NCBI RefSeq assembly: GCF_025602895.1
Contig: NW_026516209.1
Location: 806,001-870,000 of the forward strand
Length of the DNA: 64,000 bases
DNA from: Polychytrium aggregatum
Taxonomy: Eukaryota > Chytridiomycota > Chytridiomycetes > Polychytriales
Direction of reading: 5' to 3'
The notes below the pieces were generated by a model. That model made no database searches and was not told the DNA's origin. It saw only the letters and a list, made by a program, of their open reading frames with translations. Below, piece after piece: positions 52,982-64,000 of the stretch; positions within the stretch are counted from its first letter, which is position 1; each line of letters opens with the position of its first letter. The translations under genes were made by a program, and so were the position numbers.

Positions 52982-53188
52982 GACTGCGGTGATGGATGTA
53001 GGTGGAGTGATGCACTATGAAAAAAGTTCTTGTTAATAAAATGAGCGAGAACGAAAAAACGCGCTCTCGGAGCCACCTCGGTTGGCGAGAAGAGCAATCT
53101 CTGGCGAGAGACCCCCGAGGGAAGGCGAGAAGCCTCTCGCCGTCACACACACACACTTTGCACAAGGGAGTCAAACACCTCCCATCGA

Positions 53189-53322
53189 CCATCCCAAGAG
53201 GGATGGCAACCCCGAAGTGGACTGCCCAGAATATGGGCGACCCGGCATCCACTGTCGAAATGCACAAGGAACAAGATGCTTACAGTCTATCCAGAAAGAA
53301 ACGGGACAGATCCCCTTTCTGG
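53189..53322 (-). ncRNA. Candidate Fanzor guide-RNA (fRNA/omegaRNA) region
   Basis: Three hairpins follow one another at and just past the 3' end of the long Fanzor ORF (minus strand order): 53322-53291, outer 8-bp stem CCAGAAAG/CTTTCTGG plus inner GGGA/TCCC; 53238-53224, GCCCA/TGGGC; 53206-53189, perfect 7-bp CCATCCC/GGGATGG with a 4-nt loop. TnpB and Fanzor guide RNAs are encoded at this position, overlapping the ORF 3' end. No transcript evidence; boundaries and guide unknown. Confidence 0.45.
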
Positions 53323-55867
53323 CTTCAGACTGACTTGTAGGCCCAGCGGGTAGGCCATGGCATTGCACTCCTGCCTTCGTCGGCAATCGCTTTGTTTCGT
53401 TGGTTTCGGGAGCACAGTCTTGAATACACCCGGTCGATCTCCTGTGGCGATGGTCGACTGGCATACCGAGATCATGTTCCGTGAGGCATTGATGTCTCGA
53501 TGTGTGAGTGTGGTGCAGCTTGCACAGCTCCGTACATAATGTGGCTTCTCGACATCAAGATACTCGGGTGACTCAAGTCGCTTGGCTTCCCGACAAGGTG
53601 AGCACACCTGGGATGTGTTGAACTCGTTCACCGAGCACACATGGATCTTGGAGACGGATCGGTCTGGTGGTCGTCTCTGGTGGTGGTGGAACTGCTCAAA
53701 GTACTTGGCGAACCTGAGTCTCCTGGGACTGGATGCATATCCCTTCCCTTGCTTCCAGGATGCATTCCCAAAGGCAATCACCACCTCGGTCTCCTTTGGT
53801 GCCTGGTCAATGACTTGCTTGCACATCTCGTGGACGGTGCGCTGTCGCTTGCTGTGGAGATCAAGCCGTTTGAACCGCCGTCGCCGGGTCAGGCTGAAGT
53901 ACAGCTGCTTGGCCAGCATGTCTCCATCGAACACATGGCGAATATATAGCAGGAAGGGATACATCCCAGGGATCTTGGGGCTTGGTGTAGTGCTCATCCA
54001 TTTCTGCAGACCAAGGGCCTTGTGGGTGCTCTGGATCCACCTGGTCGCTTGGGTGGTGCCAGTTCGATGCTGGTACTCCTTGTTGGAGAACGACACGATC
54101 TTCTCGTTGGCGCGCTGTGCCTTGGTCACCTTGACACCGTCTTGCTCCTGGATGGATGGTTGTCCGGGTGCTCGAATGACAGCGGTGAAGATCGATCCCA
54201 CACCAGGGTCGATCCCGATCCATGTGGTCCGAGAGTCGTCAATGGGACCGACTCTGGCCTGGATCTTCTTCTCGGGGGTGAGCTCGGGTGTCTTGTCCAC
54301 GGTTTCTGGTTTGACATTAGGATCTTTCATCTTCAGGATCTTGTACTTGAGTGTGGTGATCGAGCACCCGACCCCATCGGTGCTGATCTCGCAGCCAAAG
54401 AGCTGCTTGCCTTCCTCCCTGGCACCAAAGAGTCTCGGATCCAGCTTGAAGTTGGTCTGCCAGAAGGTCTCTTGCTTTGTGGTGCCATTGACCTTGGTCT
54501 TCAGGTCGTCCCACTTGAGTCCAGTGCCAGTCTGGTATCCAAGGATCTCCCACAATGCTTTGGTGTCGAGCTTGACATACTTTGCTCTGGCATCACAGAG
54601 GGGAACCAAGGTGCACTGTGCTCGAGGGGCATTGTGTCGCTTCTTGGTCTGGGCAAGTCGGTCGGTGAGGCGCTTGATTCGCTTCGTGTTGATGGTGATC
54701 TGCTTGTCCACCTCCTCGTGCTGGGTCTGGAGATCTTTGAGTCTGTCAGCCCCGATGTGGTGGATGGGTTGGCTCATCTCCTCGTTCAGTCGCCCACGCT
54801 CTCCTTTCAGAACATCGGTCACCCTCACGAGCCTGGGAATGATCATCTTCTGAAAGACCACCATGAAGAGGGCCTCCTTCAGGTGGGTCAGGCGAGAGAC
54901 CTCACTGGCCAGTTTCGATACAACTCGATACAGGTCCTGGTGGCTTTCGTACCGAAACTTATACAGCTGGTCGGCATGGTGGGCGAAGGATTTTCTCAGA
55001 TCAACGAGGAGTGTCTTGGAGAGGGGATTCTCCATCAACTTGACACAGTTGTCGACGTGTGTGTGACGTTTGACATCCTTCGGAGCAACCAGGACCAGAT
55101 TGCAGTATCGGCGTAGAAGGGACCAATACCGATCGAGAATATGGGTCTCACAGTTGACGGCATAGGCCTTGACAGCCAAACCAAGGACCTGTGAACCAGT
55201 ACCCTTTGGGAGGGACACTGGAGGCAGGATACACGTCTCACTCCATGTACTTCGGTACATCTCATAGGTGTCGAGGAGGTGCCTGTCATCTTCTGGGGTG
55301 TTCGTCCTGACACCCACTGTTCCTGTCTGCACCATGTTGAAACACTTTCGAACAAACGAGGAATCACTCGACGACACAGTGGGGAGAGTGATGCCCTCGT
55401 CCAAGCACCGCCTGAGATGCAGCTCCAGGAGACGAGATGCTTCGTACTGGACTTGGGTCATGGCCCGGACAGTCTCCTCGATCTTGTCGTGCAAGGCATC
55501 GTTCTTGATGATGGCATCGAGGGTGCACTTGACGATCGAGTACTCGGCCTTGGCATACTCGTTGGGGCCACAGTCAGGCAAGGTAGAGCTCCAGAGTGTT
55601 ATAGAAACGGCACTTTGGGGTGTTGCTTCTGGTATGACCCTCTTCCCCGCACGTGGCACATACAGGGACCTTGGGTGCTTGGCTGACCATTTCAGCGACC
55701 GAGGCAGGGCTGCTGTCGACTCTGGCTGTACACTTCTTGGTGAAGGGTTTGACATGGTTGGTCAGGCCACAGGCACGACACGATTTGATGGTGAACTTCT
55801 TGGCCACAGGAGAGTCACTGGGTGATCCCGGGTCGGGATCGGGGGGTGTCTTTCGCTTGGGAGCCAT
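53287..55867 (-). CDS. Fanzor (eukaryotic TnpB-like RNA-guided nuclease), long copy
   Basis: Intronless in a gene-dense, intron-rich region. The main frame runs from 55755 down to TAG at 53287-53289 (822 codons). RuvC-I is in TTWIGIDPGVGSIFTAVI (Asp codon 54208-54210, residue 516). The block VVIAFGNASWKQGKGYASSP lacks the canonical RuvC-II Glu; the likely displaced Glu is in SVNEFNTSQVCSPC (711). RuvC-III is THRDINASRN (Asp 754). Zinc-finger cysteines are 718/721/744/747. Upstream, in another frame, an ORF from ATG 55867 encodes a PKRK-type nuclear-signal-like start and two zinc knuckles (CRACGLTNHVKPFTKKC, CATCGEEGHTRSNTPKC), stopping at 55574-55576; one frameshift near 55575-55600 would join it. 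Against B and relic 1, the C-terminus runs ~30 residues past LPKPTK. Possibly active, possibly just frameshifted. Confidence 0.88.
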
Positions 55868-57952
55868 CTGGCGAGAAAATAGCAGCGATGGCTGGTTCTG
55901 CCCTTGGGGAAGAAAAATTCTCCTCAAAACCAGCGCATTTTGGGCTGGCAGTGATACTGTGCAGTGGCGTCCTTGATTCGGATCCAGAAACGCATCGCTC
56001 GCTCAATCAGTCGTGGGAAGACATCTTGTCAAGGTGAGTCTTGCCTGATAGCCAAACGATCATGCCATCTCGCTGACACACAGCCACGCTTGACTAGGTT
56101 TCCAACCAGAGAGATTCAGACGGTGGTGGTTCTTGTCCGCAATCGGAGTGGAGCTTCCAACAATGATACAATTGGTCATTCCTCCACACCAATTGCCCAC
56201 CCTCACCATCAATCGGCTCAAGGTGATACCAAATGCCGTCAACCGACCATGGCCGGATTCCAACTTTTGCTGCTCCACATTCGACGTGACTTTCAGGTGA
56301 CCGAGATGAGCAGCCTCGAGGGGGACGGAAAAAATTGATAGTGATGGTTGTGGGCCAAGAAGAAAGGCGCAGCAGTCGGAGTTGAATTAGGGTTGTATCC
56401 AGGGCAGAGCCAGGGTTAGGGTTTGAGCATGTGTCCGGCACGTGTGCTCATCCCGTGATCTGGTCCCCTGACCGCATGAGTCACTCCAGACGGCTGGCCA
56501 CATCTGGCCAGCCACCCCGTGTTCCCACCCCCACCGCGGGCCCCGGTTCGTGCGCGGGCGCCGAGCGCCGATTGGTCTCCCTTGCCAGTGAATGGCCAGA
56601 GATACGGGCTGGGCCGAAAGCCGATAGGTAATGTCTGTGCGACGCAGCTCTCGCCGAGACGCTCTCGCCGTGCTCTCGCCGCGGCTAGATGCTGGGACGG
56701 CGAGCGGTTCGGGTCTCGCCGTGTCGTTATCAGCGGAGGTTTCGGCTTGCCATTCCGTTGGTGCTGGTGCGCCGTTATCGCCCGTGTGCGAGCAAGCGGT
56801 TCGTGGGACAGCTGTGCAGTGTCGAGGTGCGCTTCAGTCGCCTGTGTATCCGCACTGTGGACTGTGTTTGCAGCTCTGCGGGAGTGGCTGAGTCCACTGC
56901 CGCAGCAGCCCCGCCACAGCTGGCTGCTCTGATACACAAACAGCACCACACAGCACAGCACCACACAGCACAACGGCACACACAAACACCCGCCTCCGCC
57001 GACACAACAAACACAGACAACACGCCGCCCTCTGGTGTCTTTGCCGCCGCCCTTGCCTTGGGTATCTTCCTTCTGGCCCGCCGCGGTATATCTTGGCCGT
57101 CCTTCGCCGTCCTTCGCCGTTCTTCGCTGACCTTCTTCTGCTGCCTTGCGTCCTTGGCCTACGTCTTTGGCCTGTGTCCTTGGCTGCATTCGCCGCTTGC
57201 GCCCTGCTTGTCGCAATAGCAAACATCCGTCTTCGCCGTCCCCGCCCCTCCCACCCTCCCAGTGCAATATTTGCACGGGGCCCGATCGTCGTTCCGTCTT
57301 GCGTTCTGGTCCTTTCCTGACCTGCGGCCCCTCCCCTCGGCCTACTTCTCACTCACATTCCCCCGTTGCCGATCTTCTCCCACCGGCACTCCAGCTCCGT
57401 GTAAATACCCCCGCTAGGTCCCTGAGTGTAGCACGCTTTCCGAGAGCAATAAACGAAACTGCCGTTTGCCCTCCTCCAATTGCCACTCCTTCCCAGCCCT
57501 TCCCCCACAACCCCTTCAATCCCCACCACCTCCGATTTTGCCGGTCTCTTGGATCCGGACCCTCTTCGTCCGAAACCCCGAGTGCGAGCCAAGTGTCTTT
57601 CCCTCGTTTGTGCTCTAAATCATCCCAGGCGGTCTAAGAACGCCCCAAGCATCCATTTTGTGTCTCTGGAGATCATCAGAAATCGCTGGCTGTTGCTAGA
57701 TATCGCCGAGCATCTTTGACTGGACAGCATCTCCCGATCTTCAACTCCCACACACACTGCAACTGCATTCGGTCTCGCCGACTAGACCCGACCGCATCTC
57801 GACTCATCTCCGGCCGACCATCAGTCTCTCTCCCTCCGGGCGTGCTTGAATCTGCTCGCAATCTGCGCAATCGCAGACAAACAATCACAGCCGCAATCTC
57901 AGTCACCATCGCAGGCGCACTGTCTCAACCACAATCGCCACCCCCCACACCC
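55868..57952. other. 2.1-kb intergenic region: Fanzor 5' flank and kinase promoter
   Basis: No further gene recognised. Holds the telomere-like motif near 56387-56428 and a pyrimidine-rich, CA-rich leader before the kinase. The open frames at 56416-57276 lack motifs. Confidence 0.5.
56387..56428. repeat. Telomere-like TTAGGG vestige
   Basis: AATTAGGGTTG followed within 25 bp by CCAGGGTTAGGGTTTGAG: about three degenerate TTAGGG units, 0.5 kb upstream of the Fanzor start. Too short to prove telomeric origin. Confidence 0.4.
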
Positions 57953-62850: not shown

Positions 62851-64000
62851 TCACTTTGGCAGCCTCCGAGTGAAGACCGCCGGTCGCTCTCTGGTCTCCA
62901 CAATCGACCTGCACACTGCGATCATGTTGCGCGCCGCATTGACGTCGCGATTCCACACTGTCCGGCAGCTGGGATTCTTGCAGCTCCTGACAAAGTGGGA
63001 ATTCGCAACACTGGGCGCATCGAGTCCTTCCAACCGAACTGGCTCCAGGCACTTGGAGCACACTTGCGAGGTGTTGAACTCGTTCGTCGAGGCCACCTTG
63101 ACGCTTCCATGATGGTGATTGGGACGGCGTCGGTGGTGCTCGAATTGCTCAAAGTACTGAGCAAACCGCTGCCTCCGAGGGCTGGATGCATAGCCCTTGC
63201 CTTGTCGCCATGACGCATTGCCAAAGGCGATCACCACATCGGTCCGTATCGGGGCGTGCTTCAGGACGGCCTTGCACATCCTGTCGACGGCCACTTGGCG
63301 CCTCTTGTGGCCCGTGAATCGATGGTGACGGGCCTTCTTGCCAAGGTGGAAGTCGAGCTGCACTCGCAGCTCCGGTCGCAGGACATGGGTGAGATGGACC
63401 TTGAAAGCCTCCGAGGATGACACCTTGGGCGAGGGGGTGGTCGACATCCAGGTCTCGATGCTGAGTCGATACTTCATGGTGTTGTGCCACTCAGTATTGG
63501 ACATATGGCCACACATGTGCTGGTAGTGGCCATTGGAGAACGAGACCACCTCGTCTTGGTGGCCCGGTGCTTGGATGACCGCCGTGAAGATGGAGCCGAC
63601 TCCAGGATCGATGCCAATCCAAGTGGTGCGGTTGGGGTTTGGGTCACCGATGTGGGCCTGGATACGCTGTTCGGCAGTCGGAGGAGGCTCGATGGTCTCG
63701 GTGTGATCGGTTCGAGGCAGAAACTTGACGAGGCCGATGGTGCATCCAATGCCATCGGTGCTGATCTCGTAGTTGAACAGCTTGTGATTGATATCCCGGT
63801 CACGGAAGAGGGAACTACGCAGCTTGAAGCAGCTGCGCCAGAGACGATCCTGGTTGTTGACACCGTCATCACCTTCTTCCTTGAGCATGTCCCAGGTGAG
63901 GCCAAGACGATGTTCGGTGTCAAGGAGTTCCCAGAGAGTGACCGTGTCAATCTTGACATACTTGGCCGTGGCAGTGCATAGAGGAACCATCGTGCACACG
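62851..64000 (-). CDS. Fanzor nuclease, second copy, truncated by window edge
   Basis: The C-terminal ~382 residues are visible; the N-terminus lies beyond 64000. Clearly paralogous to the long Fanzor but diverged. Landmarks in order: RTTWIGIDPGVGSIFTAVIQ (RuvC-I Asp codon 63607-63609), WMSTTPSPK, VVIAFGNASWRQGKGYASSP, NEFNTSQVCSKC (displaced RuvC-II Glu codon 63079-63081), a zinc-finger second half CKNPSC, and WNRDVNAARNMIAV (RuvC-III Asp 62944-62946). The frame has no stops or frameshifts in the visible part and ends ...VFTRRLPK at TGA 62851-62853, about where relic 1 ends. No introns are needed. All catalytic and zinc residues seen are intact, so it may encode an active nuclease. Confidence 0.9.
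   Translation of the reverse strand, partial: VCTMVPLCTATAKYVKIDTVTLWELLDTEHRLGLTWDMLKEEGDDGVNNQDRLWRSCFKLRSSLFRDRDINHKLFNYEISTDGIGCTIGLVKFLPRTDHTETIEPPPTAEQRIQAHIGDPNPNRTTWIGIDPGVGSIFTAVIQAPGHQDEVVSFSNGHYQHMCGHMSNTEWHNTMKYRLSIETWMSTTPSPKVSSSEAFKVHLTHVLRPELRVQLDFHLGKKARHHRFTGHKRRQVAVDRMCKAVLKHAPIRTDVVIAFGNASWRQGKGYASSPRRQRFAQYFEQFEHHRRRPNHHHGSVKVASTNEFNTSQVCSKCLEPVRLEGLDAPSVANSHFVRSCKNPSCRTVWNRDVNAARNMIAVCRSIVETRERPAVFTRRLPK

What the first reader, a model, noticed from the sequence alone, without database searches (positions are those of the whole stretch)
53287..55867. Long intronless Fanzor nuclease gene with complete catalytic core
RuvC-I (GIDPGVG), displaced Glu (NEFNTS), zinc finger and RuvC-III (RDINAS) are all present in one 822-codon frame, flanked by intron-rich host genes. 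Fanzors are established as RNA-guided DNA nucleases, with a characterised member from the chytrid Spizellomyces punctatus; this appears to be a related but distinct family member.
Basis: partly seen in the sequence, partly recalled or inferred. Interest (0 to 1): 0.92.

Follow-up and report, generated by a model that had tools for sequence, protein, structure and literature searches.

The report
Fanzor nuclease moved between transposons
This is one copy of a repeated jumping gene in a chytrid fungus that carries an enzyme of the RNA-guided DNA-cutting Fanzor kind, and its DNA still shows scars suggesting that the enzyme moved from one kind of transposon (Tc1/mariner) into another with CACTA-type ends.

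Summary
The Fanzor call is right: sequence profile, fold and catalytic residues (D516, E711, D754) place it with SpuFz1 and its kin. But it is not an intact stand-alone gene. It is the only gene recognised in a 3,331-bp transposon (53013-56343) with CACTAT inverted ends and a 3-bp target duplication, in Polychytrium aggregatum; 42 of 50 fetched Fanzor loci share its 3' end. This copy has a 2-bp deletion near codon 94, so about 50 codons at the start of the 822-codon frame are out of frame with sister copies. Main discovery: the element holds fossils of a Tc1/mariner element (transposase tail, whole 3' TIR), and sister loci still are mariner transposase + Fanzor, so the Fanzor changed carrier. 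Two leads: insertion sites carry a motif oriented relative to the Fanzor (M-T at -4,-3 in 19 of 28 sites, mirrored in 5 of 28), which I read as its TAM; and copies at one insertion site on two contigs differ far more inside the element than in the flanks, consistent with overwriting by other copies. Guide RNA, TAM and function are inferred; no transposase bearing these ends was found.

The parts
53013..56343 (-). whole family-A element, 3,331 bp, CACTAT-type ends, one recognised gene
   Evidence: sharp loss of similarity at both ends against other copies; boundary table
53010..53012 (.). 3-bp target-site duplication ATG (copy at the 3'-of-gene end)
56344..56346 (.). 3-bp target-site duplication ATG (copy at the 5'-of-gene end)
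53013..53021 (.). terminal inverted repeat CACTATGAA
   Evidence: 78 exact genome sites of a 23-base end pattern, 0 of the reversed control
56335..56343 (.). terminal inverted repeat TTGATAGTG (CACTATCAA on the minus strand)
   Evidence: 74 exact sites of a 17-base end pattern, control 0
53013..53280 (-). 3' segment without similarity to the mariner family; predicted to fold strongly; candidate guide-RNA end (inferred)
   Evidence: last 240 nt 97.1% identical among 28 copies vs 87.8% at third codon positions; fold z -2.57 for 153 nt; alifold z -7.0 for the last 145 nt, no covariation
53281..53309 (-). fossil Tc1/mariner 3' terminal inverted repeat; contains the Fanzor stop codon
   Evidence: A-B similarity ends at the mariner terminus; the same kind of end directly borders varied DNA in family B; letters
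53287..55755 (-). 822-codon frame; residues 516, 711, 754 catalytic by homology
53287..55599 (-). part of that frame that is in frame with sister Fanzor proteins (nuclease core and most of the N-terminal lobe)
   Evidence: alignment A1; codon map
55574..55867 (-). family N terminus with zinc knuckle, in a different frame in this copy (2-bp deletion near 55597)
55984..56026 (-). fossil end of the mariner transposase gene (encodes DVFPRLIERAMRFW)
   Evidence: 93% identity over 43 bp between families; translation of the window stretch
56027..56343 (-). 5' segment without similarity to the mariner family

Best explanation
The gene is a Fanzor nuclease, nearest to Fanzor1, and the only recognised cargo of a non-autonomous transposon with CACTA-type ends. 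SHOWN: sister loci are two-gene Tc1/mariner elements (DDE_3 transposase + Fanzor), and the window's family keeps the end of that transposase gene and the whole mariner 3' repeat inside CACTAT ends; this chimera is multi-copy and its nuclease codons show purifying selection. INFERRED by parsimony: the Fanzor went from the mariner carrier to the CACTA-ended one. INFERRED: the 3' end of the element plus target duplication is transcribed into a guide RNA whose last ~15 nt come from the host DNA beyond the insertion; the protein uses it to cut chromosomes that lack the element, where the site reads about [A/C]T[C/A]N followed by that sequence, and repair from an element-bearing copy restores the insertion. 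The occupied site is spared because the element's own last base puts G where A or C is needed. A transposase supplied in trans moves the ends. This particular copy is frameshifted before the nuclease core and may be dead or make an N-terminally altered protein.
For: Fanzor identity. Exact 3-bp duplication in 20 of 28 independent sites (22 of 30 before allelic repeats L003 and L020 were merged). Mariner fossils and family B: similarity and transposase frames, DDE_3 7.1e-24 and 2.8e-24 in the two transposases tested, transposase upstream in six of seven B loci (not in L059). Selection: median dN/dS 0.31 over codons 100-822, aligned D, E, D codons kept in 50 of 50 copies. Oriented motif: A/C at -4 in 26 of 28, T at -3 in 20 of 28, G at -4 in 1 of 28; M-T forward 19, mirrored 5 (all five also forward), sign test 14:0, p 1.2e-4. 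Precedent in PMC10432273 (section 7 and passages): S. punctatus elements have a conserved CA upstream of the 5' repeat and the SpuFz1 TAM is CATA; TIR and TSD are predicted parts of Fanzor1 guide-RNA scaffolds (PMC10711439, passages). Insertions with replaced content.
Against: No transcript, no cleavage data. No transposase with these ends: of 82 3' ends 45 pair with a 5' end, none as an element of 3.9-20 kb (from exact-pattern and capped lists), and of 29 PF02992 places only one lies within 20 kb of a listed end, outside a complete 3.7-kb element. Family B's guide RNA should end at its mariner repeat, so family A may still use that scaffold; that segment also folds better than column shuffles (z -2.7 with B, -2.0 in A alone). 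The 5' end, a control, folds better too (z -2.4), and 5' bases 121-360 are at least as conserved as the 3' end, so conservation may only reflect transposase binding. No covariation. An oriented motif could come from unequal ends. This window's own site has C, not T, at -3. The root of the protein tree is uncertain. The replaced-content effect is also seen in family C.
Confidence: 0.7

Rival explanations
1. Same transposon history, but the guide RNA is still made at the old mariner repeat inside the element. Its guide is then internal DNA, so the Fanzor no longer targets empty insertion sites and is a passenger, or targets relatives lacking it.
For: Family A and B proteins are about 80% alike, so they should bind the same scaffold; the mariner repeat core is retained in 38 of 43 family-A elements searched for it by an exact 10-base string; that segment folds better than shuffles.
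Against: The repeat (93%) and the 40 nt after it (90.5%) are less conserved than the new 3' end (97.1%) and vary in length; it does not explain the oriented motif at CACTA-type insertion sites.
Confidence: 0.25
2. A passenger: the transposase chooses oriented sites because the two ends differ, and ordinary ectopic gene conversion mixes copies; the Fanzor has no role in retention.
For: The two ends differ from base 7 onward; deletion derivatives are common, 15 of 45 paired elements at 1.55-1.63 kb; the replaced-content effect is also seen in family C.
Against: Nuclease codons under purifying selection; the motif resembles the published TAM-plus-TSD arrangement.
Confidence: 0.3
3. The mosaic and allele differences are assembly artefacts of a repeat-rich genome.
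For: No record of the sequencing method was found (one search); 418 contigs, some overlapping as if haplotypes.
Against: Ends, duplications and flanks are crisp in independent loci; 747 of 881 differing sites in 8 pairs have both states in at least two other copies, as real copies would, though mixed reads would too.
Confidence: 0.2

Closest known systems
SpuFz1 / SPu-1 element of Spizellomyces punctatus (Fanzor1)
   Same: chytrid Fanzor; single-gene, multi-copy element with inverted ends and ORF-less relatives; D-E-D RuvC and TNB zinc finger; conserved oriented bases upstream of the 5' end (PMC10432273 section 7)
   Different: SPu-1 has 33-bp TIRs and putative TA duplications (PMC3627910, passages); this element has ~9-bp CACTAT ends, 3-bp duplications, mariner fossils and an N-terminal zinc-knuckle region
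Fanzor1 in Tc1/mariner elements (Bao and Jurka 2013, PMC3627910, passages)
   Same: family B of this genome is a DDE_3 transposase + Fanzor element
   Different: family A has lost most of the transposase and the mariner 5' end and sits inside CACTA-type ends
CACTA (EnSpm/CMC) DNA transposons
   Same: ends begin CACTA and make 3-bp duplications (defining features recalled, not from a call)
   Different: no CACTA transposase is linked to these ends here; cargo is a Fanzor
Spodoptera frugiperda ascovirus Fanzor1 element
   Same: non-autonomous TIR element coding only Fanzor1, short TSD (PMC10711439, passages)
   Different: transposon family unknown there; no ancestral carrier described in the passages seen

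Membership tests
Fanzor (TnpB-like RNA-guided nucleases of eukaryotes) | RuvC with split D-E-D and TNB zinc finger, homologous to known Fanzors | tested here: met
Fanzor | guide RNA from the 3' element end plus flank | tested here: inconclusive
   folded, conserved 3' end but the 5' control folds too; no transcript data; no Rfam match
Fanzor | RNA-guided, TAM-dependent dsDNA cleavage | not testable with these tools
   needs bench work
Fanzor1 (as opposed to Fanzor2) | closer to Fanzor1 than to Fanzor2 | tested here: inconclusive
Fanzor2 in IS607-type elements | carried by an IS607-type element with serine recombinase | tested here: inconclusive
   no second gene was recognised in the element by eye on the frame list and the sister carrier encodes DDE_3, but no serine-recombinase model was run, and Fanzor2 outside IS607 is known
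CACTA (EnSpm/CMC) transposon | ends starting CACTA | tested here: met
CACTA (EnSpm/CMC) transposon | 3-bp target-site duplication | tested here: met
   20 of 28 independent sites exact
CACTA (EnSpm/CMC) transposon | moved by a PF02992-type transposase | tested here: inconclusive
   29 PF02992 places in the genome, none tied to these ends
Tc1/mariner (family B sister elements) | DDE_3 transposase, inverted ends, TA at both sides | tested here: met
   DDE_3 in the two tested; ends and TA

The most novel reading that the evidence does not exclude
The Fanzor acts as an RNA-guided retention and homing device of the transposon: only insertions whose 5' side carries its TAM in the right orientation are kept, and cuts it provokes are repaired from other copies, so both versions of one insertion are repeatedly overwritten. 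Moving into CACTA-type ends gave the nuclease a new guide-RNA end and a new TAM-compatible target duplication.
Probability: 0.25. Interest if true: 0.85.

Novelty: new variant of a known kind. Interest (0 to 1): 0.6.

Why it matters
Fanzors are known from several transposon superfamilies (PMC3627910, passages), which implies carrier changes, but I know of no case where the change itself is on record (recalled; not a literature claim). Here mariner-type and CACTA-ended carriers coexist in one genome with the scar preserved, so one can ask directly what happens to guide RNA and TAM when an RNA-guided nuclease changes transposon. The oriented insertion motif gives a testable TAM prediction, and the insertion pairs are a possible natural record of copy overwriting.

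Tried and rejected
Stand-alone host gene: rejected, sharp repeated boundaries. Sequencing error as cause of the frameshift: unlikely, the same 2-bp deletion is in L002, L003 and L057, though absent from the presumed allele L022. RIP-like hypermutation as cause of allele differences: rejected, 747 of 881 differences are states shared with other copies. Autonomous CACTA partner: not found. Empty sites: none in 6 joined-flank queries; all 18 hits stop at or within 5 bases of a junction or piece end. Rfam match: none. A conserved fixed guide after the mariner repeat: the region is variable. TA-flank motif for family B: only six 5' flanks, nothing clear. First AlphaFold model of 770 residues: mean pLDDT 49.5, unusable as a whole. 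Catalytic distances were not measured (no coordinates available to me). Alifold of the last 240 nt gave z -23.7 but the alignment has many gap columns from a simple repeat; not used. Tree of A and B: B one clade, root unsure, A star-like. One protein against PDB found no Fanzor; only the profile did (LaTranC also scored 4e-4). L009/L018 have a lost 5' end, so their 5' boundary is approximate; the same holds for the first bases of L005/L041.

Papers: PMC10432273 section 7 and passages; PMC3627910, PMC10711439, PMC11423790, PMC12633428 passages only. The Science Advances 2023 Fanzor survey is recalled and was not held; it may list CMC-associated Fanzors, so the CACTA association may not be new. 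Searches: 'Fanzor' 82 papers, 40 listed; 'Fanzor'+'CACTA' 0; 'Fanzor'+'EnSpm' one work, a co-mention; 'Fanzor'+'Polychytrium' 0; 'Fanzor'+'transposon'+'TSD'+'mariner' 3 listed, one not opened; searches gave nothing used.

Full report
Observation. The 822-codon minus-strand frame exists at 53287-55755. Its motifs and residues 516, 711 and 754 are as stated. The quoted end, 55867, is the start codon of a different frame that encodes an N-terminal zinc-knuckle region (zf-CCHC 2.5e-4). In open sister copies such as L008 (862 aa) that region and the nuclease form one frame; here a 2-bp deletion near codon 94 separates them. About 50 residues at the start of the 822 are therefore not the family's N terminus.

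Host. Five of the eight protein hits are gene models of Polychytrium aggregatum, two on a contig of 1,154,014 bases, the length of contig C375 of the window's genome. The assembly has 64.7 Mb in 418 contigs.

Element. Comparing loci gives sharp ends at window 53013 and 56343. The ends are CACTATGAA and CACTATCAA; the window copy has ATG at both sides. Of 50 fetched Fanzor loci, 42 have this 3' end; seven (family B) and L060 do not, and of these eight, seven show a mariner-type 3' end and L058 is cut short. Of 28 independent insertions with both ends (allelic repeats and copies with lost ends dropped; the deletion derivative L061 kept), 20 have an exact 3-bp duplication. The 3' end pattern has 78 exact sites genome-wide, 0 for the control. 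Of 82 3' ends taken pair with a 5' end: 26 in the 3.3-3.9-kb Fanzor class, 15 of 1.55-1.63 kb, one of 2.6 kb, three of 278-665 bp. L061, the one 1.6-kb element read, is an internal deletion of the Fanzor. Searches list only 40 places each, so these are lower bounds.

Carrier switch. In six of seven family B loci a transposase gene lies upstream (L059 has other DNA there); the two tested are DDE_3 (7.1e-24, 2.8e-24). The B ends read CAGYC and GACTG next to TA. Family A resembles B through the Fanzor to the very end of the mariner 3' repeat, and has one isolated 43-bp piece, 93% alike, from the transposase's end, coding DVFPRLIERAMRFW. The family A end probes found no match in the B loci. The simplest account is a mariner-Fanzor inserted in, or captured by, a CACTA-ended segment with loss of the mariner 5' part. 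Transposases like B's are abundant (123 scored of 623 candidates), as are TNB domains (150 scored of 663).

Function. Across copies, median dN/dS over codons 100-822 is 0.31 (1,222 non-independent pairs); the aligned catalytic codons are D, E, D in 50 of 50 and the four zinc-finger cysteine codons are changed somewhere in 10 of 50. The last 240 nt are 97.1% identical among 28 copies, third codon positions 87.8%, but the 5' segment is also conserved (96.1%), so this is not specific to a guide RNA. The 3' end folds better than shuffles (z -2.57, 1 of 200; last 145 nt z -7.0, 0 of 100 column shuffles), without covariation. In the same test the 5' control end gave z -2.4 (3 of 100), the mariner-end segment -2.7 (0 of 100) with B included and -2.0 (4 of 100) in A alone. 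Column shuffles do not keep dinucleotides.

Oriented motif. In ORF orientation the base before the duplication is A or C in 26 of 28 sites and the duplication starts with T in 20 of 28. M-T occurs in 19 of 28 forward and 5 of 28 mirrored; all five mirrored sites also match forward. Earlier Fisher tests on 30 rows gave p 0.009 and 0.010. The element's own end gives G at that position, seen in 1 of 28 5' flanks. In S. punctatus a conserved CA upstream of the 5' repeat, with a putative TA duplication, fits the measured TAM CATA. I therefore predict a TAM near [A/C]T[C/A]N. The motif was found by looking, so its p value is descriptive. The window's own site reads ACCAT, matching M but not T.

Overwriting. 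For 12 pairs of loci sharing an insertion site on different contigs (taken as alleles), flanks are 99.4-100% identical; the elements are 94.8-98.4% identical in nine pairs, and 99.5, 99.9 and 100% in three. For the window pair the flanks are 99.5 and 99.8%, the element 95.5%, and in 8 of 13 240-base windows some other copy is closer than the allele. In eight pairs 747 of 881 differing sites have both states in at least two other copies. At the L025 site one contig has a full element and another a 1.54-kb one whose deletion junction matches that of L061. The family C Fanzor of this window is 96% like its counterpart on contig C118, no more than it is like the 38 other full-length places listed (96-97%; 40 scored of 981 candidates). 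So the effect is not unique to family A; general conversion or assembly mixing remain possible.

Conclusion. Ordinary as a protein (a Fanzor), damaged as a copy, but unusual as an element: a visible change of transposon carrier with a testable prediction for guide RNA and TAM.

Noticed in passing
window 62854-64000 (-): A second Fanzor (family C, 48% identical to L008's protein, TNB 7.3e-10) running off the window end; its counterpart on C118 is no closer (96%) than other genome copies.
   Followed up: partly
window about 55895 (site); 13 of the 29 loci compared: A ~367-bp insert TGTCA...TGACA flanked by AGAAC duplicates lies just upstream of the Fanzor start in many copies but not in the window copy: looks like a solo LTR that was carried along and might act as promoter.
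   Followed up: partly
P0003, P0006, P0008 and others: Public P. aggregatum gene models contain Fanzor pieces joined to other domains (PF00646, recalled as F-box; male sterility; kinase); probably annotation fusions.
   Followed up: no
window 52981 (-): 31 bases separate the element from a start codon of a possible host gene (MGKSAKFFKRP...), so a guide read from this copy would match that upstream region. Pfam found no domain in the frame tested there.
   Followed up: no
L033-L040: Two groups of PF02992 (CACTA-type) transposase loci are 100% identical within and 98% between over the 3.2 kb held, so such elements look recently active.
   Followed up: partly
C112, C402, C406, C366, C146 of G000: Examples of a DDE_3 transposase hit with a TNB domain ~2.4 kb downstream on the same strand: a large mariner-Fanzor family is likely (read off by eye, not counted).
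   Followed up: no
L022: The presumed allele of the window copy lacks its N-terminal frameshift but has another in the zinc finger, shared with L045, L046, L048, L050, L051.
   Followed up: yes
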